Source: Chitinophaga sp.
Lineage (GTDB): Bacteria; Bacteroidota; Bacteroidia; Chitinophagales; Chitinophagaceae
NCBI RefSeq assembly: GCF_017745275.1
Contig: NZ_JAGHZS010000004.1
Location: 310,001-374,000 of the forward strand
Length of the DNA stretch: 64,000 bases
Reading direction: 5' to 3'
Position numbers and translations under genes: made by a program. Each line of letters begins with the position of its first letter. Positions within the stretch are counted from its first letter, which is position 1. The notes beneath the pieces were generated by a model. That model was given only the letters and a program-made list of their open reading frames with translations. It had not been told where the DNA came from and searched no databases. Below are positions 31,041 to 64,000 of the stretch, piece by piece.

Positions 31041-33032
31041 CTACATCCTGACCCGTACAGTAGTACTACCGGAAATATTCGCAGCAGCCCCCACTCCTAT
31101 GAGAGCCGCTCTCCGGGCAGGCCAGTCAATGGTTCCCAACTCCTCCCAGTCAATCCCATTGTAGGACCCGCACCCTTTTATAAGGTTACCTGAGCGTGTA
31201 ACTTTCAACCAATAGGCGCCTGTCAAACGGCCATAGGTAACAGCAGGCTCCCTCAACGGTTGCTGTGCTAAAACAGCTACAGCAGCTCCCGGCTGTTTTC
31301 GTTGCATCAGTTGCACCATCCACTGCGGCGCCTCAATGTCCTTTGCTTTACCCGGGTAAAGCATCCAGGCAGCAAAAGTACTGGCTGGTTCCTGATTGGA
31401 TCTGATCATCAGGCCCACAGCCGTAAATTGAGAACTGGGTTGCGGACACACCCGGATAATCACTTCTTCATTTTTCTTCAGTTTTCTATAGGTATAGTTT
31501 AAAGCAGTTGGTAAACTATCCGTAAACCTGCCTCCTGCTTCTATCCGTAGCTCGTTACCATCGTATTGCGCATAGCCGGATGTTTCGGTATTCCCAATGT
31601 CGGTATTGTGCCACCCCAGAGGAAGCCCGCCGCCGGCAAGAGATACCGGCAATGAGGCCGCCGATTCCCTTCCATCCTGAATACCGGTAACCGTGTAATA
31701 AAATATCACACCTTCTTTCACACTACTGTCGCGGAAAAAATTTCCTGCAGTAACACCTGCTTTTACATAGTGACCCTTTTTATTTTCCGCACGCCTGATA
31801 ACATAAGACGAAGCACCGCGGAGGCTCACCCATGTCAACAGCCCGGTATCAGTAGTGGCCCGTAACACCAATCCCGCCGGCCTCTCCACAGAGAAATTAA
31901 CGGTATCCATTTTATCAATGACCGGGCTAATAGTATAGAATAAAGTACCATAGCCGGGGTGATCTGCACCCGGAGTTCCCGGCCCTTCCGGCCGCAGCTT
32001 ATCCGCTGCCGCTTTTGTAAATGGAGCCGGTAGACCCATTCTATTTACATAATGATTATACACCTGTTCATATACTGCACGCAGCTTTCCACGCGCTGCT
32101 TCCGAAGGACGCGTATGACGATATTTCCCGGTGCGGTCGATCATAGGCGTGTAGGGTATATCGTTATAACCCAGGTTGTACTTAGCTGTGTACTCAAACC
32201 CTTTCAACAGGCGGTTGTTAGCATAAGCATATAGATCTAACCCCTGATGCCAGGCCATTTCACAGCATTCGGCCAGCATGCCGATTCCGAGCTGCGTATG
32301 TGCCTGATCTCTTCCTGTTTCCTGCACCTGTCCTTCATCATTGATAATATAATGGGTAAGACTCCCGTTACCCCAGCCATTTACATAATAGCGAACCGCC
32401 TTCTCAAAAATTTCATGGTCATTACAAAAAATGCCGATGGCCATCACCGTTTTAAGCGCTGCATCATCCCAGTTGCCATTGGCAAACGGTGCATATTCGG
32501 CAATAACAGGATAGATTACACGGAGAAAATGTTGTTCTGTACGTTTCACAGCGGCAGCAGACCAGCCGGCATCACTGTATCTCATGATCTCTGCGGCATT
32601 CACCATTTTAAAGGGCCCCAGGCCGGCCATCAGCACCGCATCCCTCCCGATTACGGACTGCAGTGTATCACTCCAGGCATCAATGATGCGGATAGCCGTT
32701 TGCGCATAACGTTTATCGCCGGTAATAGCCCACATCACAGCATTCTGATAGGCTGCATTGGCATCACTGTCGTAATCCGAATGGCCTATGGAAGGATTCC
32801 GTCCTACTTCCCGTAGCGGCCCTTTCAACTGGTAATCACAGTGAGAGAAAGGGCTTTCTTTAAACACTAGAAAACCTTCGTATATGGGTGACCGTTGCTG
32901 CGCAACTGCAGCTCCCATCCTCCGTAAATCCTCCCTGCTGTGCAGCAAGCCCGGGTGCACAAATGCCGGCGTCTGCGCGGACGTTGACATTCTTATCGCA
33001 AAAAAAAATAAAAATATCAGCGCTCTACTCAT
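31041..33032 (-). CDS. Alginate-lyase-superfamily protein with FN3 and C-terminal beta-sandwich (lyase 1)
   Basis: This 663-residue exported protein starts at the ATG 33030-33032, overlapping the GH97 stop by 8 bp (ATGAGTAG), so translation is coupled. After the signal peptide (ALIFLFFFAIRMSTSAQ) comes an all-alpha (alpha/alpha)-toroid domain of the alginate_lyase superfamily (about 20-370). It contains FVHPGLLHS, NGNWDDA and the family motif QETGRDQAH. A fibronectin-III-like region follows at about 380-465, then a laminin-like or DUF1349-like sandwich to the end. Polysaccharide lyases with this fold include PL5 and the glucuronan/alginate lyases of PL38 (family knowledge), so a uronic-acid polymer is plausible. 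Two relatives occur at 60858 and 63034. Substrate not determined. Confidence 0.75.
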   Translation of the reverse strand: MSRALIFLFFFAIRMSTSAQTPAFVHPGLLHSREDLRRMGAAVAQQRSPIYEGFLVFKESPFSHCDYQLKGPLREVGRNPSIGHSDYDSDANAAYQNAVMWAITGDKRYAQTAIRIIDAWSDTLQSVIGRDAVLMAGLGPFKMVNAAEIMRYSDAGWSAAAVKRTEQHFLRVIYPVIAEYAPFANGNWDDAALKTVMAIGIFCNDHEIFEKAVRYYVNGWGNGSLTHYIINDEGQVQETGRDQAHTQLGIGMLAECCEMAWHQGLDLYAYANNRLLKGFEYTAKYNLGYNDIPYTPMIDRTGKYRHTRPSEAARGKLRAVYEQVYNHYVNRMGLPAPFTKAAADKLRPEGPGTPGADHPGYGTLFYTISPVIDKMDTVNFSVERPAGLVLRATTDTGLLTWVSLRGASSYVIRRAENKKGHYVKAGVTAGNFFRDSSVKEGVIFYYTVTGIQDGRESAASLPVSLAGGGLPLGWHNTDIGNTETSGYAQYDGNELRIEAGGRFTDSLPTALNYTYRKLKKNEEVIIRVCPQPSSQFTAVGLMIRSNQEPASTFAAWMLYPGKAKDIEAPQWMVQLMQRKQPGAAVAVLAQQPLREPAVTYGRLTGAYWLKVTRSGNLIKGCGSYNGIDWEELGTIDWPARRAALIGVGAAANISGSTTVRVRM

Positions 33033-34866
33033 GATTACCTGGTCTGAAAATGAATGCCTGTCCACCTTTAGCCAATAACTTTACCGGTACCCTGTCTCCG
33101 CTGGTAAGCCGCATGGTTCGCTTACGAATAGATTGATTTCCGTCATCTTCATAAACAGTTACGATGTAGGAAACACCGGGCTTGAGGAAAGACAGCTTCA
33201 GCTCTGCCTGCCAGTCGTTCAGACCCGCCGCGCAGCCAAGGTACCAGGTATCTCCTTTCCTTCTCGCTATAGCTATACCTTTACCGATATCCCCCGCCAG
33301 GTAATGCGATTCATTCCAGGTAGTGGGCACGTAGTCGTAGAATTCAATCTCTTCTTCATTGGTATAATCATTAGGCTGACCATACCAGAATATGGCCTGC
33401 AGCGGGCTATAATAAACTACGCTCAGCGCCAGCTGCTGTCCCTTTGAAACTTTGATATGCTTTGAAAAATCATATTTTGAGTTAGGGAAACAATAAGTAT
33501 AATCTGCAGCGCCGGCAAAATAACGGGTGAAGGGAAGCGTGGTAGTATGAAAAGCATCCGGACTGTTTTCATTCCCCCTGATACCTTCCTGTGTTAACAA
33601 TGCCGGGTAGGTACTGCTAAGGCCGGTGGGTTTATAATTATCGTGGATGTTAAGTATAAAGCCATATTGCTGCACCTTTTTTATTGCCTGTGATAACCAG
33701 GTGAGGCCGGATTGGGTAAGCCCATCTACAAAACCGAATTTAAGACCCGCCACACCCCACTGTTTATAAAGCGGAAGAATAGTATCCAGTTTGGCTTTCA
33801 GTCCTATATAATTTACATACAGTATAACGCCGACCTGGTGCTTTCTGCCGTATGCAATCACTTTCGGCATATCGATGGCCGGAATTACCTGGGTGGGATC
33901 AGACGACGAGCGGAACTCAGCCCCATACCATCCTGCATCAAACATGATATACTGAAAATGATGCTTCACCGCAAAATCGATGCAATCCAGGCCGCTCTGT
34001 GTATTCAGTTGAGCGCGGATAAGTTTACCAGGTTTGATCCACGAGAAATCTCCCGGTCCGGGGGCATCTGCCAGCTTTGTATTCAGGCTGCGGCAGTGAG
34101 CGAGGGCAATAGCAGAAGTGGCCACACTCAAGGTTCTCCACGGTGTTTTTATATTTCCATGAAACAGCACGGCAGTATCCCTCGGAAATTTTATCATCAG
34201 CGTATTACCATCTATGCCCCGGGCCAATTCCGCTTTCGTATAGTTTAAGTTCACGGCCTCTCCTACCTGGTAATAATTTCCTGCTGATTCCATGGTGACC
34301 GGCAGGTCTGTAGTAGTACGGAAAGTATCCGCCCGCGTTGGCGTAAAAATAGATTCTTCATTATATTGATACAGCAGCGGAGAAGCAGGAAATGAGAAGG
34401 TAGTAAATTCACGGAGCCTGTGTTGCATGGTGTCTGCCACGGCTACTGTGTACCGGAAGGCGATGCTGCTGTCCATTACACGAAAATCGATGATCACAGG
34501 AAGGCCTGCAGTTGTTTTCAGATACAACTTCGCCTGCTGATAAATACAAAACAGCGTATCCTGCTCCCCCAGCGGAGTTGCAATGGATTCCTGGTGACGT
34601 ACGGGTTTATCATACCGGGTAATTTTGGCGTTGCTCAAAGAAACGCCGTCAATGGCAATATCCAGTGCTGACCAACCTGTAATTTTTTTTCCTTTGAAAG
34701 ATAACTGGTAACCGGGCTTTCCACCCGGCGCGCTGATCGACAACACCGTCGTGTTGCCGGGAGATGTTATAGAATATATCTTTTGAGCGGAAAGCGGCCC
34801 ATGCAGCAACAGGCAGGTAAGCCCCGGTATGCCCAATGATTTTAATAAAGAAAACATTTTATTCAT
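33025..34866 (-). CDS. GH97 family glycoside hydrolase
   Basis: This exported enzyme of about 613 residues has the GH97 layout: N-terminal beta-super-sandwich (about 30-260), TIM barrel (about 265-540) and C-terminal sandwich. The start is the ATG at 34864-34866; a TTG two codons earlier is less likely. Motifs include FDAGWYG, LKFGFVDG, NIHDNYKPTG and TQEGIRGNE. GH97 contains retaining alpha-galactosidases with an Asp nucleophile and inverting alpha-glucosidases with two Glu bases. Here the usual retaining Asp position appears as Gly (KFGF), and the inverting NAHE-type Glu appears as Asp (NIHD). The mechanism is therefore unclear. It is the middle gene of a GH28-like, GH97, lyase operon. Confidence 0.85.
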   Translation of the reverse strand: MNKMFSLLKSLGIPGLTCLLLHGPLSAQKIYSITSPGNTTVLSISAPGGKPGYQLSFKGKKITGWSALDIAIDGVSLSNAKITRYDKPVRHQESIATPLGEQDTLFCIYQQAKLYLKTTAGLPVIIDFRVMDSSIAFRYTVAVADTMQHRLREFTTFSFPASPLLYQYNEESIFTPTRADTFRTTTDLPVTMESAGNYYQVGEAVNLNYTKAELARGIDGNTLMIKFPRDTAVLFHGNIKTPWRTLSVATSAIALAHCRSLNTKLADAPGPGDFSWIKPGKLIRAQLNTQSGLDCIDFAVKHHFQYIMFDAGWYGAEFRSSSDPTQVIPAIDMPKVIAYGRKHQVGVILYVNYIGLKAKLDTILPLYKQWGVAGLKFGFVDGLTQSGLTWLSQAIKKVQQYGFILNIHDNYKPTGLSSTYPALLTQEGIRGNENSPDAFHTTTLPFTRYFAGAADYTYCFPNSKYDFSKHIKVSKGQQLALSVVYYSPLQAIFWYGQPNDYTNEEEIEFYDYVPTTWNESHYLAGDIGKGIAIARRKGDTWYLGCAAGLNDWQAELKLSFLKPGVSYIVTVYEDDGNQSIRKRTMRLTSGDRVPVKLLAKGGQAFIFRPGNHE

Positions 34867-34917
34867 TTCCAATTTTTATCGGTTAATCAATTGCGGGCAG
34901 GTGGCCCGTCTACAGGG

Positions 34918-36375
34918 TTACTCTGTTTTTCTGAACACCAGGCTGTCTACAAACTCGCCTACAAACATCCTGGCCATATCTGCCGTTTTATACCAACCTG
35001 GCTTCCCGGCCATGTTATCAGCGATCAGTACACCGTTTATTTTCAGGTTTTCGAATACCACATTATGGATTCTCCTGTCTTCGCTGTAGCCTGTGATAAT
35101 CGATAGTTCCGGGCTATTACCATTATAAGTTACATTTTTAAACAGTATATTTTCTATGCCTCTGCCAGGTGCTGTACAATACTTTTTATTAAACGGAATC
35201 TGCAGGTGTACCAGTTGTCCGCGCCTGATATTCTCTACGCGGATATTTTCAAAAGATATATTTCTTACCAGGTTATTATCGCCTGCATTTATGGCCATAC
35301 AACCCTGGTAATCCACCTGCCTCTCCTGGTGTTCCAGGATATCGATGTCGATATAATGTACATTATCGATCGTATCGGGATGGGGCGTATTGCCATGAAT
35401 GCCGATGTGTATGGGATGGGCTACATCTGCCCAGAGTATGGACCGTTGCATGGTGATGTTCCGGCAACCACCGGTAAATCCCTTTCGTGTAGCATACACC
35501 GTAGTGCAGTCGTCCGAATTGCGACAAAAGACGCCATCATACAAAATATGGCTGCTGGCAAACACATTCATACCATCGCCCCATTTGTATGCGCTGATGC
35601 TTTTTACATTGCGGACAATAATACTATCGGAGCCGCCTATCGGGCATTGGGTAAGCGTAATACCTTCCACCAGCACATTTTTCGCATGCGATATGGTAAC
35701 GCCTTCCTTTCCGGGAGATTCAATAATTCCCCTGCCTGTTATTTTCACATCCCGTACACTATCCACTACTATTCTCCCCTTTACTACTGCTCCACCGGCG
35801 ATGTATACCGTTTTGCCGGAAGCGACCTTCAACACCTCATCTTTCAATACGTGGAACCCCGGCCCAAAATAGATGATGTCATCTGCTTTGGGGTCCGGGA
35901 TCACGTCTGGTACGGGATTAGCAAACAAATGGAGATTGTGAAATTTATCACCATTTATTTCAATGGAGAGATGCCTGGGTTGATGTAAACGAAAATAAAC
36001 GGTATTGTTCACTACCTGGTGGTCAATGCCGTATGAAAGCGGCCGTACGGCGGCGTGAATGATTTTCTCCCTGTTGCTGGTTACCGCTACTTCCACTTCT
36101 TCCAAAAAATCAAAGGCCACCATAGAAGCATTTTCTACATGATGATTTACGCCTCTTACCTCATCTACCTTTACATTATACTCATATAAATCCTGCCATG
36201 GGCCGCCCGGCTGCCGGACCTTTACCGTAAAATCAGGGTTATGTGCGGCACTCCCTGTTTCCTGCCCCGGGAAGGGATATACCGACAACTGCGGTTGTTG
36301 CGCAATACTAATTGTCGAAAACATTACACAAAAAGCAATACCGGCTACTTTAATGGATGTCCAATCTAAATTCAT
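34918..36375 (-). CDS. GH28-like right-handed beta-helix glycosidase (copy 1)
   Basis: This 485-residue exported protein starts at the ATG 36373-36375 (MNLDWTSIKVAGIAFCVMFS). A beta-sandwich N-terminal domain (about 25-165, with FTVKVRQPGGPWQDLYEYNV) precedes a parallel beta-helix (about 165-480). The active-site pattern follows the polygalacturonase clan: Asp267 in KWGDGMN, the Asp pair 288/289 in RNSDDCTTVY and a HPIHIGIHGNT segment at the place of the GH28 GHG motif. The N-terminal sandwich plus helix layout also resembles GH49. It leads the operon with GH97 and lyase 1, and C-rich direct repeats lie upstream at 36496-36527. Copy 2 is at 59365. The substrate is probably an acidic polysaccharide (inference). 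Confidence 0.78.
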   Translation of the reverse strand: MNLDWTSIKVAGIAFCVMFSTISIAQQPQLSVYPFPGQETGSAAHNPDFTVKVRQPGGPWQDLYEYNVKVDEVRGVNHHVENASMVAFDFLEEVEVAVTSNREKIIHAAVRPLSYGIDHQVVNNTVYFRLHQPRHLSIEINGDKFHNLHLFANPVPDVIPDPKADDIIYFGPGFHVLKDEVLKVASGKTVYIAGGAVVKGRIVVDSVRDVKITGRGIIESPGKEGVTISHAKNVLVEGITLTQCPIGGSDSIIVRNVKSISAYKWGDGMNVFASSHILYDGVFCRNSDDCTTVYATRKGFTGGCRNITMQRSILWADVAHPIHIGIHGNTPHPDTIDNVHYIDIDILEHQERQVDYQGCMAINAGDNNLVRNISFENIRVENIRRGQLVHLQIPFNKKYCTAPGRGIENILFKNVTYNGNSPELSIITGYSEDRRIHNVVFENLKINGVLIADNMAGKPGWYKTADMARMFVGEFVDSLVFRKTE

Positions 36376-36495
36376 CAGTGGAAAGTTTATGTATGCGCTG
36401 ATCAGCCATGCGTGGCATTTAACTTCTTTGATATTACATTGGCGGCCTATGACTAACCAGCATGCAAAGTAAACATCAACAGCTCCCAACTATAA

Positions 36496-36527
36496 GGGGG
36501 AGTACTCGCATAAAAAGGGGGGTGAAG
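36496..36527 (-). promoter_or_regulatory. Putative HTCS2/HTCS3 operator upstream of the GH28-GH97-lyase operon
   Basis: On the minus strand, CTTCACCCCCC (36527-36517) and GTACTCCCCC (36505-36496) are direct repeats about 21-22 bp apart, pointing to the gene at 36375. Similar C-rich pairs occur at 40837-40867 and 47906-47942. Further G5 runs (36564-36568 and 36572-36576) and a C5 run (36546-36550) crowd the same 215-bp gap. Binding by HTCS2 or HTCS3 is inferred. Confidence 0.55.
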
Positions 36528-36590
36528 TGTGAATTCAGGGAGACTCCCCCTGCAATTTGCAGAGGGGGTATGGGGGTATATACGCCGGAT

Positions 36591-39500
36591 TCAGGATTTC
36601 TTCCGTTCCATACCTTTCTTTCTTGTTTCTATTTTTTCTACTTTATATTTATCCTCGAATGCTTTCCGGTAACGCCGGATGTACTCGGAAGGATTCATGC
36701 CAAATATCTTATTGAATTGCTCCCGGAAATATTTCACGTCATTTATACCTACCTGGAAACCTATTTCATTGACATTTAAGTCTGTGCTAATCATGAGTTC
36801 TGCGGCTTTTCTCAGGCGTATAAAGCGGACAAATCCCCTCAGCGATTCCCCGGAAACGAGCCGGATCTTTTTATATACAGAAGAATAGCTCATACCAATT
36901 TCCCGGGCCAGCACCTTTATATTGAACTCGTCGTTATCAAGATTTGCTTCTACAATAGCAATACATTCTTCTACGAACTGCTTATACTGACCGGAAACTT
37001 TTAAGTCATTTTTGCGGAGGGTAACTTCATTCAGGAAATAATTACGCAGATTATCTCTTGTTTGCAAAACACTATTTACAGTAGCAGTCAACAGCTCCTT
37101 TTCAAAAGGCTTGGTGATGTAGTAGTCGCTGCCTGCCTCTGCACTTGCCAACTTTCCCTCTTCCGGTGAAGAGCCCGTGAGCAGGATAACAGGAATATGA
37201 TTGAGCAGCGCATGCTGTTTAATGGCTTTGCAAAGTTCGAGGCCCGACATTGTTTCCATCCTGATATCGCTGATCACAACGTCCGGCAGCAGGGCAATGG
37301 CTTTTTCAAGTCCCTCCTTTCCATCGGCAGCTTCCTCAATATTAAATGCCGGCCGGAACATGGCTGAAATATATTGACGTATCTGTATATCGTCATCTAC
37401 AATCAACATTGTTTGCCGGGATGTTATCACAGTGGGAATCGCCTCTTCTTCCGGATCTTCCTCTACAACATCTTCCAGTTGCGGTTCTGACATCGTTTGC
37501 AGGAAAAGGGTTTTATCGCCCTGGTTGTTATTAGCCGGCTCCTGGCTCACATCATCAGCACCGCAAGGTAAAACAACCGTAAACCTGGTGCCCCGGCCAT
37601 CATTGCTTTCAAAGCTCACTGTCCCCTGGTGCAGTGATACGAACTTTTTCACCAGGTACAACCCTATGCCAAAACCTGGTTTCCCTGCCGCACCACTTCC
37701 TTCGGATCTATAGAATCTCTCAAATATTTTGTCGCCGCTACCGGCAGGAATGCCACACCCGGTATCTGATATGGTTACTGACACCTGGTTGTCAGCGCAA
37801 TGCAGCTTCATGGCAATGCTACCGCCAGCAGGTGTATATTTAAAAGCATTTGACAACAGGTTGAAAAGCGCTATCTCCAGTTTTTCCCTGTCGCCCGTGA
37901 TCCATAGTTCCTCCTGGCTTCCCTCAAAAGAATAGGTCTGACCAGCCGACTGCGCCTGCTGTTCAAACGACTGAAACACGTCCTGGCATAGTTCAGTGAA
38001 ATTGATACGGGAGGGGATTAACTGCTCAATGTCACTATCTGCCCGCCTGAACAACAGCAACTGATCCAGCAAACGTAGCAGGCGCCGGGCATTTCGATAT
38101 ATGGTGGTAAGCTCCCGCCGCTGCTTTCCGCTAACTTCCTGCTCCTGCATCAGATCCTTTGCCGGGTTGATGATCAATGTAAGCGGCGTGCGGAATTCAT
38201 GTGATACATTGGTAAAAAAGGCAATCTTTTTTTCATTGAGTTCTCTTTCTTTCTCTGTATTCAAATTGGCCAGGGCTACCTGGTACTTCAACCGGCGTTG
38301 TTTTGTTTTATAGCTGATATAAACTACCACCAGGATAATGGCCATAACAAGGTATATGATATATGCCCACCAGGAAGCATACCAGGGAGGCAGCACCACT
38401 ATTTCCAGGCTGATCTCATTATCTGTCCATTGTCCTTCTGTATTTGTGCTCTTTACCCGGAATGTGTAATGCCCTGCAGCGAGATGCGTATAAGTGGCAG
38501 TTCTGGTATTGCCGGCTTCGTTCCAGTTTTTATCCCAGCCGTCCATATAATACGCATAAGATATTTTATTGGGCGCAGAATAATCCAGTGCTGCGAAATC
38601 GAAGGTAAAAACGGCTTCCCGGTAGGGTACTTTAATTTTGCGAAGATCATCGCCCTGTTGCGTTTCAATATAATCTGCCTTTTGTCCGATGGGCATATTA
38701 TTCACACGAATGTCCGTGAAACGCATGTTGAGTTTTTCATCAGATGGCCGGATATCAGATGGCCGGAAGATATTCAACCCTTTGATGCCGCCAAACATGA
38801 GTTCCCCGGATTGGAGCCGCAGCGCAGCATTATAATTAAATTGGTTGCCGGAAAGCCCATCTCCCTGGTAGTAGTTAGTAAATGTTTCCCGGCTGGTATT
38901 AAACCGGGAGATACCATAAAACGTACTTATCCAGAGATCACCCGCTTCATCTTCCAGGATATTGAGCACGGCGTTGTTACATAATCCTTCTGCGGCGGTA
39001 TATCGCTTTAGCACTTTGCCTTGCGCACGGTCAAACAACAGTAACCCGCCACCTTCTGTCCCTACCCAAAAGTGGCCTTTGCGGTCTTCATGAATGGCCC
39101 TTACCGGGTTGCCCAGCATATAGAAGACGTCGTTGTGATGCTGCGGATCAACTTTTATCAGGCTGCGGAGGTTCCCCGCCCATAGCTGCCCGGAGTGGTC
39201 TTCCTTCATTGTAAAGAGGTCCGTTAACTTGTCGTCTGCCAGTTTAAACATATCCTGTTGCGGGTCATATTGATACAGTGCGCCTTTATATAACTCACCT
39301 CTGCCGAAAGTACCCGCCCATAAAGTGTTATGGCTATCTTCATACAAGACATATACTGTTTTACTCTCCTTTTCACTGTCTTTATACATCAGCCGGTAAT
39401 GGCGAAAGGAATTGGTTTGTTTGTCGAACCTGTTAATCCCTCCCCAAAATGTGGATACCCAGATGTGTTGCTTATTATCGCAATGCACATTCGTTATAAA

Positions 39501-40736: not shown

Positions 40737-40836
40737 CCCGTGGAAATTAAAAATACTACGTGGCTTTGGTTGATGGTAGAATACGAGTTTACCCCCTCTT
40801 CCTGGTGCTAAATTACGCCATGAAAAATGATCGTCA

Positions 40837-40867
40837 GGGGGGACATTCTCATAATTCAGGGTGTATA
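40837..40867 (-). promoter_or_regulatory. Putative HTCS2/HTCS3 operator in the HTCS2/GH95 divergent region
   Basis: On the minus strand, TATACACCCTGAA (40867-40855) is followed at about 21-22 bp by GAGAATGTCCCCCC (40850-40837). The second half matches the GAGTTTGTCCCCC element at 47928. The site lies about 100 bp upstream of HTCS2 and 200 bp upstream of the divergent GH95. The rest of the 333-bp gap (40737-41069) shows one more C5 run at 40792-40796 and nothing else recognised. Confidence 0.5.
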
Positions 40868-41069
40868 ATAGTAATTTTTGTCTAAACGACACTTATTTAA
40901 TTCATTCCGCTGTATTTTGGTTGTGAAACACTGGCAGGTCTGATGGCACAAAAAAAGTGGCCGGTCCGGTCCTGTCTTTACAATACAGCTGATAAATCAA
41001 CCAGGCTTTTCTTCCGGGATACCTGTTCCGCAGAAAAATGCCTTTCCCACGTTAGAAAATTAAATTTCC

Positions 41070-43520: not shown

Positions 43521-43583
43521 GTCCCGGAGTCCCGGATTCCCTGATCTCAAATTGCACCGCTTATCAGCCAATTCCTGTGTTGT

Positions 43584-49149: not shown

Positions 49150-49189
49150 CGGACTAAGTAATCAATCAAAATTTCATTAATAACGATCA

Positions 49190-49214
49190 GGGGTAAAAAA
49201 GCGGTTTTTACTCC
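49190..49214 (+). terminator. Hairpin between lacI and susC
   Basis: GGGGTAAAAA (49190-49199) pairs with TTTTTACTCC (49205-49214), with one G-T pair, around a 5-base loop. It lies 41 bp after the LacI stop and 35 bp before SusC. It could terminate LacI transcription or act as an attenuator or operator for SusC. Confidence 0.45.
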
Positions 49215-49248
49215 TGCAGCAATCTTTTTGTCTTTATAAACTTCCACC

Positions 49249-52128: not shown

Positions 52129-52134
52129 CCGATA

Positions 52135-53925: not shown

Positions 53926-53952
53926 ACTTTTTGTTACAATAAACAGCATAAA

Positions 53953-56900: not shown

Positions 56901-57033
56901 TCTTTCAGGATATAACCTGGTGAATATACAGGAAATGGGCAAGTTTCAGCAGGACGCTGAAATTGCAAACGGCACCGGTGGCGCCTATCCTAACACCGCC
57001 AACTTCATCTTCGGATTGCAATTAGGCTTTTAA
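53953..57033 (+). CDS. SusC-like TonB-dependent transporter 2, full domain set
   Basis: This 1026-residue outer-membrane importer has a signal peptide (LIWFSLLSTVAWAQ), a CarboxypepD_reg-like domain (about 22-110, GRVINDKNQAISGASV), a TonB-box-like DVVVVGFGRQKR, a plug (LIGRLPGFFSQQRSGQPGADA) and a 22-stranded barrel ending FIFGLQLGF. It follows SusD 1 by 27 bp and precedes SusD 2 by 16 bp. Compared with SusC 1 it keeps the full N-terminal region, so the two transporters may differ in energising or in cargo size. Confidence 0.95.
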   Translation: MKIKIFILIWFSLLSTVAWAQDILIRGRVINDKNQAISGASVSELDNRKNGVVSDEHGNYTLSLKPGGVKKLMITCVGFLPQTITAVAGTPMVVHLTPDVKGLEDVVVVGFGRQKRITSTGAVSSVKGEEIKNVPTASIQNTLIGRLPGFFSQQRSGQPGADAADFYIRGVNSLTEDTKPLIIVDDIEYDYSQLSQLNVNEVESVSILKDAATTSIYGLKGANGVLVVTTTRGRIGKPRINVTAESGINKTIRMPTFLDSYTTALLRNEATINDAYGQSQTPVLPFTPDDLQKFKDGSDPYGHPNVNWSDVLFKKASTQSRYNVDISGGNSFVKYFTSLGYFSQNGILKDFKPVGDDVNTNYFYRRFNYRSNLDITPTKTLKIRFDVNGRFETVNNPSGTVENAGLFYELGAFRYMAPYAMPVINPNGSYSYASHLGAATNNGAINPAFRLGNGGYIRSFRNNYNIIVGADQLLDFVTPGLSAKVNISYAGNNNEGRNLNRNGLPVYKYDVATNSYAIRDAGQYRILPYAVASPAGSFNSTTILQASLNYDRTFGGHHFTGLLLLNQRNFINGVAVPVNYRGTTGRLDYDFRRKYLLGITVARNGNDLFQENNRYGIFPAISWGYNLAEEPFFKNLFPFFDMFKIRGSYGLVGTDVSYPGVVTSVIQYGTTGSNYYGNTTVEGSLVNPDVTWEKEKKTDLGLELNMFQGKLTLSGSYFYNYRYDQLIPQKDVPLLIGQGLPNRNIGKSDNRGFDGIITYRNDRGKINYSISANASYAINRIIYISEAPDYPYQAQTGNRMNLTKGYHNIGFYQLDDFDANGKVKKGIPAPQWSVIQPGDLKYADMNGDGVITDADKTWLSKPNLPSTVLGTEFTVGYKGLSLRALLQGSFGYAVQVTAEGAGDAFNGNLRPWNLERWTPATAATATYPRIGLNSNINNISYLTISDFWMANTWYVRLRSLELSYQLPRGWLKRTKAVQQARVYLSGYNLVNIQEMGKFQQDAEIANGTGGAYPNTANFIFGLQLGF

Positions 57034-57049
57034 CGCTAAAAAATCACTT

Positions 57050-58816
57050 ATGACCAGACAAAAAATATATGGAAGTATCCTATTGGCAGGACTGGCTACT
57101 GCTACTAGTTTTACTGCCTGCAAAAAAGATTTCCTGGATCAGAAAAAATTATCAGCGATCGATGAAGCATCGGTCTTCCAGGATAGTACCAGGTCACTGG
57201 GCGTAATCAATAACCTTTATTCAAGCCTGGGAATATCTTTTAACCCAAGGAGATTCAATAATACAGGGCTGGACGCTGCTTGCGATGAATCGGAGCCACT
57301 CCCCGATCCTACTTTTTACACGTATAGAATTTCAAGCGGCGGTATCAATGCCAACAACGCCGATGGCGGACTATGGGGAACTGCCTTCCAGATGATCAGG
57401 GCTGCAAATATCTTTCTGAAAAATAAAGACAGCATACCCGTAACAAATGCAACAAGAGACTACTGGGTAGGCCAGGTACGGTTTTTAAGAGCGTGGTATC
57501 TCTTCACACTGATAAAACATTACGGTGGCATACCAATGATTGGCGATAAAATATTTAGCGACAAAGAAAAAATAGATGTGGCACGCAGCTCGTATGAGAC
57601 CTGCATCAAATACGTGACCAGTGAGCTGGATGCCGCCGCTGCGGCGCTTCCCATCTCTTATCGTTCCGGGGATGTAAACCAGTTGAAAGTGACGAAAGGC
57701 GCTGCATTGGCAGTAAAGGCCAGGATGCTTTTATACGCGGCCAGCCCCCTCGTCAATAGTGGGCCCAGAGGAAACGATCCTCAAAACCTGCTCGCTTTCC
57801 CAAGTGCAGATCCCGAACGCTGGAAGCAGGCGGCCGATGCTGCCAAAGCTGTAATTGACCTGGGAGTGTATAGTTTGTATACTGCCTCTGCTACGCCTCT
57901 TTATACACTGTTCCTGCAAAACACACCACAGGTGGAGCATGTACTCGTTTATTGGCAACCATGGACTACCGGCAATAATTTCTACGTTGAAGCCAGTGCC
58001 AACCCTACTTCCAGGGGAGGCATGAACGGGTGGACAGGAACCAAATATTTTCCAACGCAGGAATTAGTAGATGAATTTGATATGATCAACGGACTGCGTA
58101 TAACAGATCCTGCTTCCGGTTATCCCGGCATCGGCAATGATATGTATAAGAACAGGGATCCCCGCCTTACCTATACTCTTCATTATAATGGTGCTCTTCG
58201 AAATATGAGCTCCTTCGGCGACCGGCCTGTCAATACCTATACAGGCGTCATTCCGGCAGGGAATGCAGCAGAAACCAGTGCAAGTGTTGATGGCATCTAT
58301 ACTTCTACAGGTACCATAACCGGCTATTTCAGGTATAAGATGTGCAATGGCGGTGGCGGCGAACTGTATCGCCCCTGGGTAGTGATGCGCTATGCAGAAG
58401 TGCTGTTAAATGCTGCTGAAGCAACAAATGAATACTATGGTCCAACTGCTGATGTATATAACTGGTTAAAGATGATACGCAGCCGCGCAGGTATTCTTGC
58501 CGGTGAAAACAGCGCATACGGTTTAAAAGCAGGAATGACCAAAGACGAAATGCGGGAAGCCATCAGGCATGAACGCAGGGTAGAACTGGCTTTCGAGGAA
58601 CATCGCTTCTGGGATATCCGTCGCTGGAAAATTGCTCCACAAACTGAAAATACAGAAACACATGGAATGGAGATTACAAGAGCTGCAAATGGCAGCTTCT
58701 CCTACCGCGTAATTCCCATCAGGAAACATGTATTTACCGAAGCAATGTATTTCTGGCCTATACCACAGAGCGAACTAACAAAGTCGCCTGCTTTAAAACA
58801 AACACCGGGTTATTAA
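57050..58816 (+). CDS. SusD-like surface glycan-binding lipoprotein 2
   Basis: This 588-residue lipoprotein has lipobox SFTAC near residue 24 and the SusD fold. Typical stretches are RAANIFLKN, RAWYLFTLIKHYGGIPMI and the C-terminal RHERRVELAFEEHRFWDIRRWK. It pairs with SusC 2. It is clearly related to SusD 1 but differs in the middle loops that usually contact glycan. Confidence 0.95.
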   Translation: MTRQKIYGSILLAGLATATSFTACKKDFLDQKKLSAIDEASVFQDSTRSLGVINNLYSSLGISFNPRRFNNTGLDAACDESEPLPDPTFYTYRISSGGINANNADGGLWGTAFQMIRAANIFLKNKDSIPVTNATRDYWVGQVRFLRAWYLFTLIKHYGGIPMIGDKIFSDKEKIDVARSSYETCIKYVTSELDAAAAALPISYRSGDVNQLKVTKGAALAVKARMLLYAASPLVNSGPRGNDPQNLLAFPSADPERWKQAADAAKAVIDLGVYSLYTASATPLYTLFLQNTPQVEHVLVYWQPWTTGNNFYVEASANPTSRGGMNGWTGTKYFPTQELVDEFDMINGLRITDPASGYPGIGNDMYKNRDPRLTYTLHYNGALRNMSSFGDRPVNTYTGVIPAGNAAETSASVDGIYTSTGTITGYFRYKMCNGGGGELYRPWVVMRYAEVLLNAAEATNEYYGPTADVYNWLKMIRSRAGILAGENSAYGLKAGMTKDEMREAIRHERRVELAFEEHRFWDIRRWKIAPQTENTETHGMEITRAANGSFSYRVIPIRKHVFTEAMYFWPIPQSELTKSPALKQTPGY

Positions 58817-58850
58817 TACAAAAGTTTAAACCTTTTTTAATGTTCAAATA

Positions 58851-59339
58851 ATGAAAAACATTATAACTGCACTTATTTTTACAGCTGCTCTTTCATTGAT
58901 TGGTTGTACAAAAGGCGGAACACTGACAAGGCCGGAGAGCAACCAATATACTATTATGTCAACTGCCAGCAGCAAACAACTGGTACCGGCCATCGATACT
59001 ACTTCCACCGGAACCTTTACCGGCTTTTATGATGACAGGCTAAACATCCTGACCTTCACCATCTCCTGGAGTGATCTATGGCGGGCAGGCAAAGACACCA
59101 TTACCGCTGTCAATTTCTATGGTCCCGCCAGTACTACAGAAAATGGCGCCCTGGTGCGTTCTTTACCGTTCGTCAGCAACAACAGCCAGGCAAGTGTGAA
59201 CCTTGGTTTGGCAGGCTTAAATGGCTTTAAAGAAAGTGAAAAGAAAAACCTGTTGGCAGGAGCCTACTACTTTACCATCAATACAAAAAAGTATCCCAAC
59301 GGTATCATCAGGGGGCAATTGACAGCAACAAAACCATAA
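58851..59339 (+). CDS. CHRD-domain lipoprotein
   Basis: This 162-residue protein has a lipobox (LIGCTKGG, Cys at about residue 19) and one CHRD domain (about 45-160). CHRD marks are GTFTGFYDDRLNILTFTISW, VNFYGPAS and the end motif YPNGIIRGQL. CHRD is a beta-sandwich of unclear function found in chordin and bacterial proteins (family knowledge). It sits 34 bp after SusD 2 and 25 bp before the GH28-like enzyme, where Bacteroidota loci usually encode surface glycan-binding proteins. It may fill that role here (inference). Confidence 0.8.
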   Translation: MKNIITALIFTAALSLIGCTKGGTLTRPESNQYTIMSTASSKQLVPAIDTTSTGTFTGFYDDRLNILTFTISWSDLWRAGKDTITAVNFYGPASTTENGALVRSLPFVSNNSQASVNLGLAGLNGFKESEKKNLLAGAYYFTINTKKYPNGIIRGQLTATKP

Positions 59340-59364
59340 ACCTATTCATTTGATTTGACGACTT

Positions 59365-60810
59365 ATGCGAAAGCTTACATTATACTTTATCTTCTTCCTG
59401 GGTTGTTGTGCGTTAAAAATAAACGCACAGCAACTCATCATTTATCCGCCTCCCAAAGCAGTTGTGTACGCTATGCACAATGACGACTACACCGTAAAAG
59501 TGCGCCAGCCCGGCGGAGAATGGCAGGATCTGTATGAATACAACGTAAAAGTTGATCTTGATAAACCACAGGATGCCTCCATGGTATATTTCGATTTCTC
59601 CGGATCTGTGGAAGTATTTGTTCAGAAAAACAATGGTAATGCACAATCCGTAAAGATCCGCCCGTCGGACAATGAAATAAAACCAATATTAAATGGCAAT
59701 AGCATTACGTTTACCTTAACCGGGCCTAAAAAACTTTCCATAGAGTTTGATGGCGATAAACTACACAACCTGCACTTATTTGCCAATCCTATTGAAACAT
59801 TCCGTCCTGATCCCAATGACCCTGATGTTGTTTACTTCGGGCCGGGAGTACATATGCCGAAAGATTTACCGGGTGAAGCATTTAATATACCATCGGGCAA
59901 AACAGTTTACATAGCTGGAGGCGCGGTAGTGAGAGGGAAACTACTTTGCGACAAAGTGGAAAATGTCCGTATCATCGGTCGCGGAATTATTGACCAACCA
60001 CAGCGAGGTGTGGAAATCAGGCACTCAAATAATGTTACCATAGATGGAATCATTGTCCTGAACCCCAAACACTATACAGTTTTTGCAGGAGGATCAGATC
60101 ATCTTACCATCCGTAACTTAAAATCATTTAGCGCCAGTTCCTGGAGCGACGGACTTGATTTTATGAGTTGCAGTAACGTAACGGTAGACGATGTGTTCAT
60201 GCGCAATTCTGATGACTGTATCACCGTGTATGGGCATCGCTGGGAATTCTATGGAGACGCAAAAAACTATGCCGTAACAAATGCTATCCTCTGGGCTGAT
60301 GTAGCACATCCCATCAATATCGGTGTTCACGGGAACACGGAAAAAACAGGCGAGGTAATTGAAAACTTACTGTTTAAAAACATTGAAATACTGGAACATG
60401 ACGAAGATGATCCTACCGCCGAAGGCTGCATGGCTATCCAGGCGGGTGATCTGAACCTGGTCCGCAATGTTCGTTTCGAAGATATACACGTGGATAATTT
60501 CCAGGAAGGAAAGCTCCTGCAATTAAAAGTGGCGCTCTATGATAAATACAATGCAGCTCCCGGCAGGGGAATAGAAAATATTTATTTCAAAAACATCACT
60601 TATAATGGCTTCAACAATGCACCGTCTGTTATTGATGGCTTAGATAAAGCACACCTGGTAAAAGACGTAACGTTCGAAAATCTACGTATCAACGGTAAAC
60701 TGATCACTAACCTGGAAGAGGCAAACATCAGGCTGGGTGAGTTCACCCAAAACATCACCTTCAAAAATCCACCATCCATAAAAAAGAATCCGGCGCTGAC
60801 GTCGAAATAA
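59365..60810 (+). CDS. GH28-like right-handed beta-helix glycosidase (copy 2)
   Basis: This 481-residue exported paralog of the enzyme at 34918 has the same N-terminal sandwich (DYTVKVRQPGGEWQDLYEYN) and helix. Catalytic positions are Asp262 in SWSDGLDF, Asp283/Asp284 in RNSDDCITVY and a HPINIGVHGNT segment. The shared residues outside the active site are extensive (for example LHNLHLFANP and PSGKTVYIAGGAVV), so the two copies likely act on related linkages. The signal peptide ends at KINAQ. It precedes lyase 2, as copy 1 precedes GH97 and lyase 1. Confidence 0.8.
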   Translation: MRKLTLYFIFFLGCCALKINAQQLIIYPPPKAVVYAMHNDDYTVKVRQPGGEWQDLYEYNVKVDLDKPQDASMVYFDFSGSVEVFVQKNNGNAQSVKIRPSDNEIKPILNGNSITFTLTGPKKLSIEFDGDKLHNLHLFANPIETFRPDPNDPDVVYFGPGVHMPKDLPGEAFNIPSGKTVYIAGGAVVRGKLLCDKVENVRIIGRGIIDQPQRGVEIRHSNNVTIDGIIVLNPKHYTVFAGGSDHLTIRNLKSFSASSWSDGLDFMSCSNVTVDDVFMRNSDDCITVYGHRWEFYGDAKNYAVTNAILWADVAHPINIGVHGNTEKTGEVIENLLFKNIEILEHDEDDPTAEGCMAIQAGDLNLVRNVRFEDIHVDNFQEGKLLQLKVALYDKYNAAPGRGIENIYFKNITYNGFNNAPSVIDGLDKAHLVKDVTFENLRINGKLITNLEEANIRLGEFTQNITFKNPPSIKKNPALTSK

Positions 60811-60857
60811 AGCAGAAAGGCAATGATGAGCCATCTGCATCACTACAAATAATAAAA

Positions 60858-62894
60858 ATGAATTTTCTCATGAATAAATTGAAACGCCTGTTATTTCTCC
60901 TGTTGTGCTTTTACCGCCTTACGGCCACTGCACAAACCTTTGTGCATCCGGGTGGCTTGCATACGAAAACAGATCTGGACAGGATGAAGAGCCAGGTAGC
61001 CGCCGGCGCGCATCCCTGGATTGATAGCTGGAACGCATTGATCACACACCCTAAAGCACAAAACACTTATACCGCGGCGGCACAGCCTAACATGGGCGTC
61101 AGCCGCCAACGCGCATCTGCCGACGCCGTTGCCGCTTATCTCAATGCCTTGCGCTGGTACATTTCAGGCGATACATCTTATGCCGCCTGCTCCAGGAAAA
61201 TTCTGAATGCCTGGGCCCATACAGTAAACCAGGTACCGGCCGGACAAGACGTACCGGGGCTAATGGGAATAGCAGTATATGAATTTGCCGTTGCCGGAGA
61301 GATACTACGCCTTTATCCTAACTGGTCGCCATCTGATTTTAACCAATTTAAAAACATGATGACGACCTACCTGTATCCTAATTGCCACGACTTTTTAACC
61401 CGTCATAATAACGCCTGCATCAGTCATTACTGGGCTAACTGGGATATCTGTAACATTACTGCCATTTTGGGTATTGGCGTGTTATGCGATGATACTGCCA
61501 AGTTCAACGAAGCCATTACTTATTTTAAATCCGGTGCAGGCAACGGCAACATTACCCGGACCATTCCCTATATATACCCTGGCGGATTGGGCCAATGGCA
61601 GGAAACCGGCCGTGACCAGGAACATGCACTGCTGGGCGTAGGTATGCTGGCAAGCTTTTGCCAGATAGCATGGAACCAGGGACAGGATATGTATGGATAC
61701 GATAACAACCGCCTGCTGGCCGGCGCTGAATACATCGCTAAATACAATCTCTGGAAAGATGTTCCTTACACCACCTACAACAACTGCGACAACGTACTGA
61801 ATTTTTGGGCATCAGAACAAAATAGCTGGGGCCGCGGCAGGTTACAACGTCCTATCTGGGAAATGATTTATAACCACTATGTAGTGAAGAAAGGATTGAG
61901 CGCTCCCCATGTAAAAGCCATGGCGGAAATAAACCGCCCCGAAGGATTTGAGCACGATGATAACCTGGGATTTGGCACATTGTGTTATACTTTAAATGCA
62001 AGTGCATCGCCTTATCCCTCCTCTCCTGCTCCATCAGCACCAACAGGCATACAGGCAACAGCCAGTGTAGGAAAAGTATGGCTAAGATGGCTGCCCGTTG
62101 CCACCGCAAACGGATATAATGTATTACGTTCAACAACAAACGGCGGCCCCTATACTACCATTGCTACCTACAAAGGTACCTATCCACTATATGAAGATAC
62201 GGGCGTAACGAATGGCACCCGGTATTACTATGTAGTATCCGCCATTAACCAGGCTGGAACCAGTAGTAATTCCTCCCCGGTAAATGCAACGCCGCAAGCT
62301 ACCGGTGCACTGGCTGCCGGTTGGAGTCAACAGGACATCGGAACAATTACTACAGCAGGTACCGCGGGGTATGCCAATGTAAGTAATGGCACCTTTGTCA
62401 TGAGTGGCACCGGCGCGGGCATCGGTGGCGCCGCAGATGGCCTCAGTTACGTGTATAAAAGTGTAACCGGAGATGCTACCATTACGGCACGGCTGACAGC
62501 CGGCACCTGGGCTGGTGGCGGTTCTCAAAAAACAGGCATTATGATCCGGGAAACGCTTTCACCTAATGCCATTGCCTTTAGTATGACATCAGGAGATGGA
62601 GGTGTTCGTGAAGCAAAATTTGGCAGCCGCATATCAGCAGGTGGCTCCATGAGTTTTCAACCCGGTAATGCATATACCCGCACGCCTACCTGGTTCCGTT
62701 TACAAAAAACCAGCAATACCATCACGGCCTATCAGTCGACCGATGGAAAAACGTGGTTTGCCGTAGGTAACCCTGTAACTGTTTCCATGGCAAACAATTA
62801 CTACGTTGGACTGGTGGTTTCTTCAAACAGTTCCAATGCAAACAGCGCCACATTCGATAGTGTAACCATAGCAGGAAAACCTCGCACCAGGTGA
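60858..62894 (+). CDS. Alginate-lyase-superfamily protein with FN3 and C-terminal sandwich (lyase 2)
   Basis: This 678-residue exported protein (start 60858, or Met5 at 60870) has a signal peptide ending at TATAQ. The (alpha/alpha)-toroid lyase-superfamily domain spans about 25-380, with FVHPGGLHTKTDL, NNACISHYWANWDI and QETGRDQEHALLGVG. A fibronectin-III domain lies at about 391-481 (PTGIQATASVGKVWLRWLPV) and a laminin/DUF1349-like sandwich at about 485-675. The domain order equals lyase 1, so both arms of the locus encode the same architecture. It lies 47 bp after the GH28-like gene. A lyase on a uronate polymer is the leading guess; the exact family (PL38-like) needs a search. Confidence 0.78.
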   Translation: MNFLMNKLKRLLFLLLCFYRLTATAQTFVHPGGLHTKTDLDRMKSQVAAGAHPWIDSWNALITHPKAQNTYTAAAQPNMGVSRQRASADAVAAYLNALRWYISGDTSYAACSRKILNAWAHTVNQVPAGQDVPGLMGIAVYEFAVAGEILRLYPNWSPSDFNQFKNMMTTYLYPNCHDFLTRHNNACISHYWANWDICNITAILGIGVLCDDTAKFNEAITYFKSGAGNGNITRTIPYIYPGGLGQWQETGRDQEHALLGVGMLASFCQIAWNQGQDMYGYDNNRLLAGAEYIAKYNLWKDVPYTTYNNCDNVLNFWASEQNSWGRGRLQRPIWEMIYNHYVVKKGLSAPHVKAMAEINRPEGFEHDDNLGFGTLCYTLNASASPYPSSPAPSAPTGIQATASVGKVWLRWLPVATANGYNVLRSTTNGGPYTTIATYKGTYPLYEDTGVTNGTRYYYVVSAINQAGTSSNSSPVNATPQATGALAAGWSQQDIGTITTAGTAGYANVSNGTFVMSGTGAGIGGAADGLSYVYKSVTGDATITARLTAGTWAGGGSQKTGIMIRETLSPNAIAFSMTSGDGGVREAKFGSRISAGGSMSFQPGNAYTRTPTWFRLQKTSNTITAYQSTDGKTWFAVGNPVTVSMANNYYVGLVVSSNSSNANSATFDSVTIAGKPRTR

Positions 62895-63033
62895 GAGAAA
62901 TATCCAATCAGCACACCCGCTAAAAAGAAATAAAAGAATCAATGCAGCAACAAAAGGGACAAATGACAGGCAGCAATAGTTTTTTCAGAAAATACCATGA
63001 AACAAATTTTTAAACCCTGATTAAAATAACCCT

Positions 63034-64000
63034 ATGATGGACTTCTTTACCACTGATATTTTATCAAAAATCAGAAAGTTCCACTGCTGCCTGGCAGCTA
63101 TTTTTATCTTTTTGTTTTCCTTAAATGCCGGGGCGCAGAATTTTGTGCACCCCGGTATTCCACTATCCAGCTCGGACCTGAGCATTTTGAAAGCGCATGT
63201 ACAGGCTGGTGATTACCCCTGGAAACAGGCGTACGACATCATGGCAGCAGATGGCAAGGCGCAGTTGACCTACCAGATGCAGGGTCCATTTGCCACAGTT
63301 AGCCGCAGTCCGGACGTCAATCGCGGCCAATGGATGAATGATATGACCGCTGCATTTTACTTGTCCCTCATGTGGTATTTTACGGACAATGAGGCTTATG
63401 CAATAAAAGCAAGAGATATTTTAATTGCCTGGGCCAATACCCAAACACAATTCACGGGACAACTGGGAAACCTGGATTTAGGTGATTTCGCGCATACTTA
63501 TGGCGGCGCAGCCTCTATCCTTCGGGGCACATGGAGTGGCTGGACACCTGCCAATACCACCGCAGTACAAAATCTTTTTAATAACGTTTACTGGCCGCCA
63601 TCAGGTTGTGGCGGTTATGCATTAGGACCGGCAAATAAAGGTACGTTAAGTATCGCTGCGGGAGCCGCCATCGCCGCGTTCTCTGATGATCCTGAAAAAG
63701 TAGCGCATGTAGTTCACCTGATGAGGTATATAGGTGCAACAGGATTAAAAAATACACTACCCAGCGGCGAAAATGGCGAAAGCGCAAGAGATCAGGGACA
63801 TGCACATGGCATGTGGGGTAACCTGGCTTTTGCCGCAGAAGTAATGTGGAAGCAAGGCCTGGATCTTTACTCCGAACTGGATAACCGGCTGCTTGCAACA
63901 GGAGAATATTTTGCAAGAAAGAATACAGGCGATTCCCTTGGATACATCCCCTATGGTACTACCGACGCCCATTATCTCACAGATGTAAGCGGTGTATGGG
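63034..64000 (+). CDS. Alginate-lyase-superfamily protein (lyase 3), C-terminus cut by window end
   Basis: The first 322 residues of a third family member are open to the window end. It starts at one of two adjacent ATGs at 63034 and 63037. The signal region is IFIFLFSLNAGAQ, followed by FVHPGIPLSSSDL and SVRSP-type SRSPDVNRGQWMND. It has the variant motif ESARDQGHAHGMWG where lyases 1 and 2 have QETGRDQ. The sequence is more diverged than the other two. It continues the SusC/D operon; the 139-bp gap before it (62895-63033) shows nothing recognised. Confidence 0.78.
   Translation, partial: MMDFFTTDILSKIRKFHCCLAAIFIFLFSLNAGAQNFVHPGIPLSSSDLSILKAHVQAGDYPWKQAYDIMAADGKAQLTYQMQGPFATVSRSPDVNRGQWMNDMTAAFYLSLMWYFTDNEAYAIKARDILIAWANTQTQFTGQLGNLDLGDFAHTYGGAASILRGTWSGWTPANTTAVQNLFNNVYWPPSGCGGYALGPANKGTLSIAAGAAIAAFSDDPEKVAHVVHLMRYIGATGLKNTLPSGENGESARDQGHAHGMWGNLAFAAEVMWKQGLDLYSELDNRLLATGEYFARKNTGDSLGYIPYGTTDAHYLTDVSGVW

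What the first reader, a model, noticed from the sequence alone, without database searches (positions are those of the whole stretch)
31041..64000. Candidate undescribed glycan utilization locus built from paired beta-helix plus lyase modules
Two arms carry the same enzyme pair, a GH28/GH49-like beta-helix hydrolase and an alginate-lyase-superfamily protein with FN3 and a C-terminal sandwich. One arm adds GH97, the other a third lyase; GH95, two HTCS, LacI and two SusC/D pairs complete the set. Sequence shows the families; the combination suggests a complex acidic polysaccharide bearing fucose or L-galactose. I know of no characterised locus with this set, but cannot search.
Basis: partly seen in the sequence, partly recalled or inferred. 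Interest (0 to 1): 0.75.

Follow-up and report, generated by a model that had tools for sequence, protein, structure and literature searches.

The report
Composite two-arm acidic-glycan utilization locus
A soil-type bacterium carries a gene cluster, pieced together from two separately inherited modules, that probably digests a fucose-bearing acidic polysaccharide of unknown identity with two kinds of enzyme whose solved relatives are all distant.

Summary
In detail: two arms each carry a beta-helix hydrolase and an alginate-lyase-superfamily protein, with GH97, GH95, two hybrid sensors, LacI, tandem SusC/D pairs and a third lyase. The window cuts the locus: the third lyase (1807 aa, T9SS tail) runs past its end and GH29 and two GH43 follow. 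Homologs of an esterase and a PA14/T9SS protein at 17-22 kb sit at the ends of the locus in three relatives.
The arms are not a recent duplication: their hydrolases and lyases fall in deep clades that cross bacterial families, and each arm is found without the other. The hydrolase has GH49 architecture with a GH28-like catalytic face. The lyases are no nearer PL38 than PL5, PL17 or PL39, and align His and Trp where a Bacteroides ovatus relative has Tyr and His. A lyase lies in the fetched flanks of the beta-helix gene in 40 of 74 loci. No paper seen assigns a substrate.
Verdict: a real, composite PUL with no substrate found. Acidic substrate likely but unproven; PL38 not supported.

The parts
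31041..33065 (-). LyaseA: alginate-lyase-superfamily toroid, FN3-like region, C-terminal sandwich; clade A
   Evidence: PF05426 5.4e-18; clade in tree; the listed GTG start overlaps GH97, an ATG 33 bases downstream is the likelier start (inference)
33025..34872 (-). GH97, retaining type (Asp and Glu of the retaining alpha-galactosidase aligned)
   Evidence: PF10566 2e-52; best PDB match retaining alpha-galactosidase 5e1q 1.1e-42, GFMD/GFVD and EG..G.E aligned
34918..36489 (-). BHelA: GH49-architecture, GH28-like beta-helix hydrolase; clade A (ATG at 36375 is the likelier start)
   Evidence: PF00295 2.3e-7; alignments and tree
36591..40892 (-). HTCS1 hybrid two-component sensor, conserved in five relatives
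   Evidence: Pfam; 77-84% in G059, G077, G013, G014, G023
41070..43520 (+). GH95 (alpha-L-fucosidase / alpha-L-galactosidase family)
   Evidence: PF22124 1.5e-163; PDB GH95 structures
43584..47798 (+). HTCS2 hybrid two-component sensor; no ortholog in the fetched stretches of G059, G077 and G013
   Evidence: Pfam; synteny
48082..49149 (+). LacI-family regulator
   Evidence: PF00356, PF13377
49249..52128 (+). SusC1
   Evidence: TIGR04056 1.4e-198
52135..53925 (+). SusD1
   Evidence: PF07980 1.1e-57
53953..57033 (+). SusC2
   Evidence: TIGR04056 1.1e-242
57050..58816 (+). SusD2
   Evidence: PF07980 2.7e-55
58851..59339 (+). CHRD lipoprotein in the slot usually held by a surface glycan-binding protein (inference)
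   Evidence: PF07452 6.8e-13; lipobox-like LIGC; same place in relatives
59365..60810 (+). BHelB: GH49-architecture, GH28-like beta-helix hydrolase
   Evidence: PF00295 6.3e-13; AF2 pLDDT 91.6; best fold GH49 isopullulanase 4e-18
60858..62894 (+). LyaseB: alginate-lyase-superfamily toroid, FN3, DUF1349 sandwich; clade B
   Evidence: PF05426 7.9e-16; AF2 of the catalytic domain pLDDT 91.4; fold search
63034..64000 (+). LyaseC, first 322 of 1807 aa; continues outside the window with DUF1349, FN3-like, ricin-lectin and LamG domains and a T9SS tail, then GH29, GH43, GH43
   Evidence: PF05426 2.5e-5; L002:1035-6458, 6598-8259, 8299-9708, 9573-11339
17371..22335 (+). PA14/Vps10-like T9SS protein (17371-20658) and SASA-type carbohydrate esterase (20776-22335); probably satellite members of the same system
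   Evidence: Pfam; homologs flank the locus in G059, G077, G013 (esterase 84-85%, PA14 protein 53-85%)
8378..14896 (.). ADH, aldo/keto reductase, MFS sugar transporter, GH29 (all -) and AraC (14015-14896, +): possibly uptake and breakdown of a fucose-type sugar
   Evidence: Pfam; AraC, GH29 and MFS orthologs beside the PUL in G077, AraC and MFS in G013

Best explanation
This is a composite polysaccharide utilization locus for a complex, probably uronic-acid-containing and fucosylated polysaccharide. It formed by joining two modules that travel separately in Bacteroidota: arm A (HTCS1, GH95, BHelA, GH97, LyaseA) and arm B (HTCS2, LacI, tandem SusCD, CHRD, BHelB, LyaseB, LyaseC, GH29, two GH43). 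Proposed working order, inferred throughout: LyaseC, with its type IX secretion tail and lectin-like domains, makes the first cuts at the cell surface. SusD1/2 and the CHRD lipoprotein capture the fragments and SusC1/2 import them. In the periplasm LyaseA and LyaseB cut uronate linkages, and the beta-helix enzymes hydrolyse an alpha linkage by the inverting three-Asp mechanism of clan GH-N. GH97 removes alpha-Gal (or beta-L-Arap), GH95/GH29 L-fucose or L-galactose, GH43 arabinose or xylose. HTCS1 and HTCS2 sense oligosaccharides and LacI a released sugar. Shown by sequence: gene content, conserved synteny, module exchange, conserved Asp triad. Not shown: any activity, the substrate, and lyase chemistry.
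For: Gene families. Two-arm orthologous loci (LyaseB 84-87% and LyaseA 75-78% near each other) in 3 of the 78 other genomes of the genus: G059, G077, G013. Arm A without a BHelB or LyaseB ortholog in G014, G023, G058, there with its own SusCD. Arm B without arm A genes within the fetched +-10 kb in Niastella, Longitalea and Paraflavisolibacter (L070-L073). Separate deep clades for BHelA and BHelB and for the three lyases. Beta-helix and lyase genes go together: 40 of 74 loci have a lyase in the fetched flanks (32 of the 56 with full flanks); of the 37 loci where both could be measured, 22 have them less than 500 bases apart. In the genus, 9 of 9 strong beta-helix matches (E <= 1e-100, in 8 of 79 genomes) lie within about 10 kb of a lyase. 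Six PF05426 genes in 7.94 Mb would give about 2% by chance (my arithmetic; it ignores the clustering of CAZyme genes). D262, D283, D284 and H315 are invariant in 44 of 44 beta-helix proteins. N194, R252, D253, H256 and E291 are invariant in 70 of 70 lyases, after dropping 3 long-branch rows of 73.
Against: No unsaturated-uronide hydrolase (PF07470) lies in the locus; the genome's three matches are on other contigs. In the 74 related loci GH88 is not tied to these lyases: 25 loci have it, 9 with a lyase, 9 with heparinase II/III (some with both), 10 with neither. The Tyr and the His after Asn of a characterised-type relative are not aligned with the same residues here, so uronate beta-elimination is not assured. 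Lyases matching LyaseA at E <= 1e-60 also occur in 22 genomes of the genus without a strong beta-helix match. The more divergent beta-helix relatives in G010, G057 and G065 have no such lyase anywhere in their genomes. Both beta-helix genes together were found in 1 of 79 genomes of the genus: G013 and G077 lack BHelA, G059 lacks BHelB, so one pair per arm is not a strict requirement.
Confidence: 0.6

Rival explanations
1. Two separate PULs that happen to abut: arm A and arm B each have their own regulator and target different glycans.
For: Each arm is found without the other: arm A with its own SusCD in G014, G023, G058, with a TIG protein in G014 and G023, arm B in Niastella and relatives. 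HTCS1 goes with arm A; an HTCS and a LacI homolog (81%) go with BHelB in L074.
Against: The joined arrangement is kept in four genomes. In the window, G013 and G077 no SusCD lies between the arm A genes, although in G013 and G077 a pair on the other strand follows the PA14 gene beyond LyaseA. An A-clade and a BHelB-like enzyme also share a locus in Phocaeicola vulgatus and a Bacteroidales MAG (L102, L091). L077 mixes a BHelB-like enzyme with GH97 and LyaseA.
Confidence: 0.25
2. The 'lyases' are not lyases: members of the alginate-lyase superfamily whose altered active site does something else (for example hydrolysis), so the substrate need not be acidic.
For: Profile alignment to 3nfv puts His256 opposite a Tyr and Trp195 opposite a His (alignment accuracy 0.68); the residue after Asn194 is Trp in clades A and B, Lys or Gln in C. 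GH88 is absent in cis and not tied to the lyases in relatives.
Against: The Asn and Arg are kept in 70 of 70. The His next to Asn is also missing in working GAG lyases (passages of PMC12088678). The fold is that of PL5/17/38/39.
Confidence: 0.2
3. A pectin or rhamnogalacturonan-II locus: GH28-like, GH95, GH29, GH43 and GH2 enzymes are also parts of RG-II and pectin systems (recalled).
For: GH28 Pfam hits; NCBIfam hits of BHelB to rhamnogalacturonidases and polygalacturonases, far below cut-off; GH127 in 15 of 74 relatives.
Against: No pectate lyase or rhamnosidase family turned up. The best profile and fold matches of the beta-helix enzymes are GH49.
Confidence: 0.1

Closest known systems
Tandem-susCD polysaccharide utilization loci of Bacteroidota (PMC6499787, passages seen)
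   Same: SusC1-SusD1-SusC2-SusD2 order with sensors and clustered CAZymes
   Different: Enzyme content; two divergent arms with three lyases; substrate not assigned
GH49 (isopullulanase, dextranase) and GH28 of clan GH-N
   Same: N-terminal sandwich plus right-handed beta-helix as in GH49; Asp triad and GH28-like catalytic face
   Different: 14-17% identity to the GH49 structures in Foldseek; relatives span Bacteroidota, Pseudomonadota and Spirochaetota
PL5, PL17, PL38, PL39 (alpha/alpha) toroid lyases
   Same: Fold; aligned Asn and Arg
   Different: 12-15% identity; aligned His for Tyr and Trp/Lys for the His after Asn; FN3 and DUF1349 sandwich domains
Loci of Phocaeicola vulgatus ATCC 8482 (L102), Bacteroides cellulosilyticus (L105), Hymenobacter and Fibrella plasmid records (L007, L008), for which the searches gave no characterisation
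   Same: Beta-helix enzyme with GH97; lyase or heparinase II/III, GH127, GH43 or GH88 in some of them
   Different: No two-arm layout seen; no alginate-lyase-type gene recognised in the 21 kb of L102 or L105; U540 in L105, L007, L008

Membership tests
Polysaccharide utilization locus | SusC/SusD pair adjacent to CAZymes | tested here: met
Polysaccharide utilization locus | Co-regulated by a glycan through its sensor | not testable with these tools
   needs transcriptomics
PL38 | Clearly closer to PL38 than to other (alpha/alpha) lyase families | tested here: not met
   dbCAN/CAZy models not available; the PL family of 3nfv, the best profile match, was not established
PL38 and alginate lyases | Catalytic Tyr, and His next to the neutralising Asn | tested here: not met
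   His256 and Trp195 (Lys/Gln in clade C) in their places by profile alignment to one chain; not checked on superposed coordinates
PL38 and alginate lyases | Neutralising Asn | tested here: met
   N194 in 70 of 70
GH28 | Pfam PF00295 above its cut-off | tested here: met
   30.7 and 49.0 bits against 22.9
Clan GH-N (GH28/GH49) | Beta-helix with three catalytic Asp | tested here: met
   fold; Asp triad 44 of 44
GH49 | Sequence membership of CAZy GH49 | tested here: inconclusive
   best profile and fold matches are GH49, but at about 16% identity
GH97 retaining alpha-galactosidase | Nucleophile Asp and acid/base Glu | tested here: met
   aligned (roles recalled); NCBIfam equivalog score 221.8 below its cut-off of 800
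GH95 alpha-L-fucosidase against alpha-L-galactosidase | Specificity-setting residue | not tested
   -

The most novel reading that the evidence does not exclude
The lyases and the beta-helix enzymes found together here are two unrecognised CAZy families: a polysaccharide lyase family using His in place of the usual catalytic Tyr, and a clan GH-N family bridging GH28 and GH49. Together they form a widespread core for one still unidentified uronate-containing plant or microbial glycan used by soil and gut bacteria; in this genome two such cores have been joined.
Probability: 0.35. Interest if true: 0.65.

Novelty: new variant of a known kind. Interest (0 to 1): 0.45.

Why it matters
Loci with the same beta-helix enzyme occur in soil, rhizosphere and gut bacteria, including Phocaeicola vulgatus and Bacteroides cellulosilyticus, yet the paper searches gave no assigned substrate. 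Identifying it would name a common glycan that these bacteria eat. If the lyases work without the canonical Tyr and His, they would add a new catalytic arrangement to a large lyase superfamily. The module exchange also shows how PULs are put together.

Tried and rejected
Recent duplication of one arm: rejected, because the A and B enzymes belong to deep clades that cross families. PL38 assignment: not supported. NCBIfam: no family for P0001, P0002 or P0005, none for BHelA, and only sub-threshold hits for BHelB. Rfam and tRNA scans of the window: nothing. Literature: ten searches for the enzyme combination, glucuronomannan, the P. vulgatus locus tags BVU_013x-015x (the tag range is my estimate from position), BACCELL with lyase, GH127/GH88, Chitinophaga PULs, GH49 and new lyase families, mucilage, PL38 residues and isopullulanase gave no matching characterised locus; the library lacks most subscription papers. 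Glucuronoxylomannan, colanic acid and arabinogalactan as substrates were considered from recall and not tested. U540 against PDB at E <= 0.1: no match. The listing was capped, so its weak matches were not all seen. A file O1.txt in the Python box was not opened. GH97 and GH95 searches against PDB were repeated to see alignments.
Full report
What is there. The window is G000:C18:310001-374000 of a 7.94 Mb genome. The closest named record found is Chitinophaga (L069, Chitinophaga eiseniae, 85% over BHelB). The genes for PurK, PurE and a carbonic anhydrase at 28589-30953 mark the left edge.

Where the locus ends. The third lyase, cut by the window, is 1807 aa long in the genome, with ricin-lectin, LamG and DUF1349 domains and a type IX secretion tail. 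It is followed by GH29, GH43 with F5/8, and GH43 with its C-terminal domain, then by a GH2 gene on the other strand. Inside the window, a SASA-type esterase (20776-22335) and a PA14/Vps10-like T9SS protein (17371-20658) have homologs at the ends of the locus in G059, G077 and G013: esterase 84-85%, PA14 protein 85, 53 and 53%. Orthologs of the AraC and MFS genes at 10789-14896 lie beside the PUL in G013 and G077, and that of the GH29 gene also in G077. They are probably satellite members moved away in this genome (inference).

Two modules, not one duplicated. In a search of 79 genomes of the genus, LyaseB and LyaseA orthologs lie near each other in four (window, G059, G077, G013). G014, G023 and G058 have arm A genes and no BHelB or LyaseB ortholog, with a SusCD pair of their own; GH95 and HTCS1 lie beside arm A in G014 and G023, while the stretch fetched from G058 did not reach that far. 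G014 and G023 also carry GH43 relatives at 63-65%. Niastella, Longitalea and Paraflavisolibacter loci (L070-L073) show arm B genes and no LyaseA or GH97 within 10 kb. In the trees of 80 beta-helix and 73 lyase domains, BHelA, BHelB and the A, B and C lyases each sit in a supported clade that includes other families of bacteria (some long branches are flagged there). Both beta-helix genes together were found only in the window genome within the genus: G013 and G077 lack BHelA, G059 lacks BHelB. Each of the four keeps at least one, which hints that the two can stand in for each other, on three relatives only. Against that, an A-clade and a BHelB-like enzyme share a locus in L102 and L091.

The beta-helix enzyme. 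A profile of 44 sequences finds GH49 isopullulanase (4e-11) and dextranase, then GH28 enzymes. The predicted structure (pLDDT 91.6) is closest to isopullulanase (E 4e-18, TM 0.70, 16% identity). D262, D283, D284 and H315 are invariant in 44 of 44, spaced like the GH28 triad (recalled). GH28 and GH49 form clan GH-N, with shared fold and catalytic machinery (passages of PMC7939477).

The lyases. The LyaseB catalytic domain (pLDDT 91.4) is an (alpha/alpha) toroid; PL39, PL17, PL5 and PL38 structures match about equally, at 12-15% identity. In the profile alignment to 3nfv (accuracy 0.68), Arg252 meets an Arg, His256 a Tyr, Asn194 an Asn and Trp195 a His. In characterised families a Tyr/His/Asn triplet is catalytic, and a His next to the Asn is conserved in alginate lyases of PL5, 15, 17, 38 and 39 (passages of PMC12088678). 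Here Asn194, Arg252, Asp253, His256 and Glu291 are kept in 70 of 70 sequences, with 3 long-branch rows of 73 dropped; the residue after Asn is Trp in clades A and B, Lys or Gln in C. So these are unlikely to be alginate lyases, and whether they are lyases at all needs an assay.

How general. Seeding on the beta-helix enzyme gave 74 loci from Bacteroidota of soil, water and gut, from Massilia, Asticcacaulis and other Pseudomonadota, and from spirochaetes; one MAG is labelled Williamsia (L077), though its gene content is that of Chitinophagaceae. In the fetched flanks a lyase is recognised in 40 of 74, heparinase II/III in 16, one or the other in 49, GH97 in 36, GH43 in 29, GH88 in 25, U540 in 20, GH127 in 15, GH95 in 4, GH29 in 3; 56 loci had full flanks, 32 of them with a lyase. 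BLAST labels at E 1e-6 miss distant members, so these are lower bounds. GH88 does not go with the lyases in particular (9 of 25), which weakens the case for unsaturated uronides as their products. In the genus, 22 genomes carry LyaseA-like proteins (E <= 1e-60) and no strong beta-helix match, so the lyases also work apart from it.

GH97 and GH95. GH97 keeps the Asp and Glu of the retaining alpha-galactosidase type (roles recalled). GH95 matches solved GH95 enzymes over its length, but the choice between fucose and L-galactose was not tested.

Novelty. Ten searches of an open-access library found no characterised match. PUL compositions seen once are common (1760 of 13,537 PULs; passages of PMC6499787), so an unmatched combination is by itself ordinary. 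The less ordinary part is the recurring beta-helix plus lyase partnership with only distant solved relatives, and the altered lyase active site. The abstract and passages of PMC11892949 concern xyloglucan loci and bear only on the neighbouring PUL. PMC12827396 was searched for three terms, with no hit. Other papers were seen as search listings only.

Noticed in passing
window 2-8275 and L004:2107-19751: A xyloglucan-type PUL directly upstream: xyloglucan-binding SGBP_B domain, GH31, GH5, GH97, SusC-like genes, HTCS.
   Followed up: partly
window 8378-14896: ADH, aldo/keto reductase, MFS, GH29 and AraC: possibly an L-fucose or L-galactose uptake and oxidation cluster; relatives of ADH and AKR lie near lyase genes in G075.
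   Followed up: partly
L152:13817-19864 (C18:285816-291863): A fourth lyase of this kind beside GH39 and GH42 relatives, upstream of the xyloglucan PUL; G014 carries the same lyase/GH39/GH42 set, with GH43 genes between, next to its arm A.
   Followed up: partly
L104:11607-13211, L007:20308-21978; 20 of the 74 loci in all, L007 not counted: U540, a conserved protein without a Pfam match in the copies scanned or a PDB match, with a GHSA motif that suggests an alpha/beta-hydrolase esterase; not in the window arms.
   Followed up: partly
L102 (NC_009614.1 164540-185871): Phocaeicola vulgatus ATCC 8482 locus with an A-clade and a BHelB-like beta-helix enzyme, GH127, GH97 and GH43, and no alginate-lyase-type gene recognised in 21 kb.
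   Followed up: partly
L005, L006, L007, L008: PULs with related lyases lie on records filed as plasmids in Bacteroides finegoldii, Hymenobacter and Fibrella.
   Followed up: no
window 14916-17022: Two adjacent DJ-1/PfpI-domain genes, one fused to an AraC-type domain.
   Followed up: no
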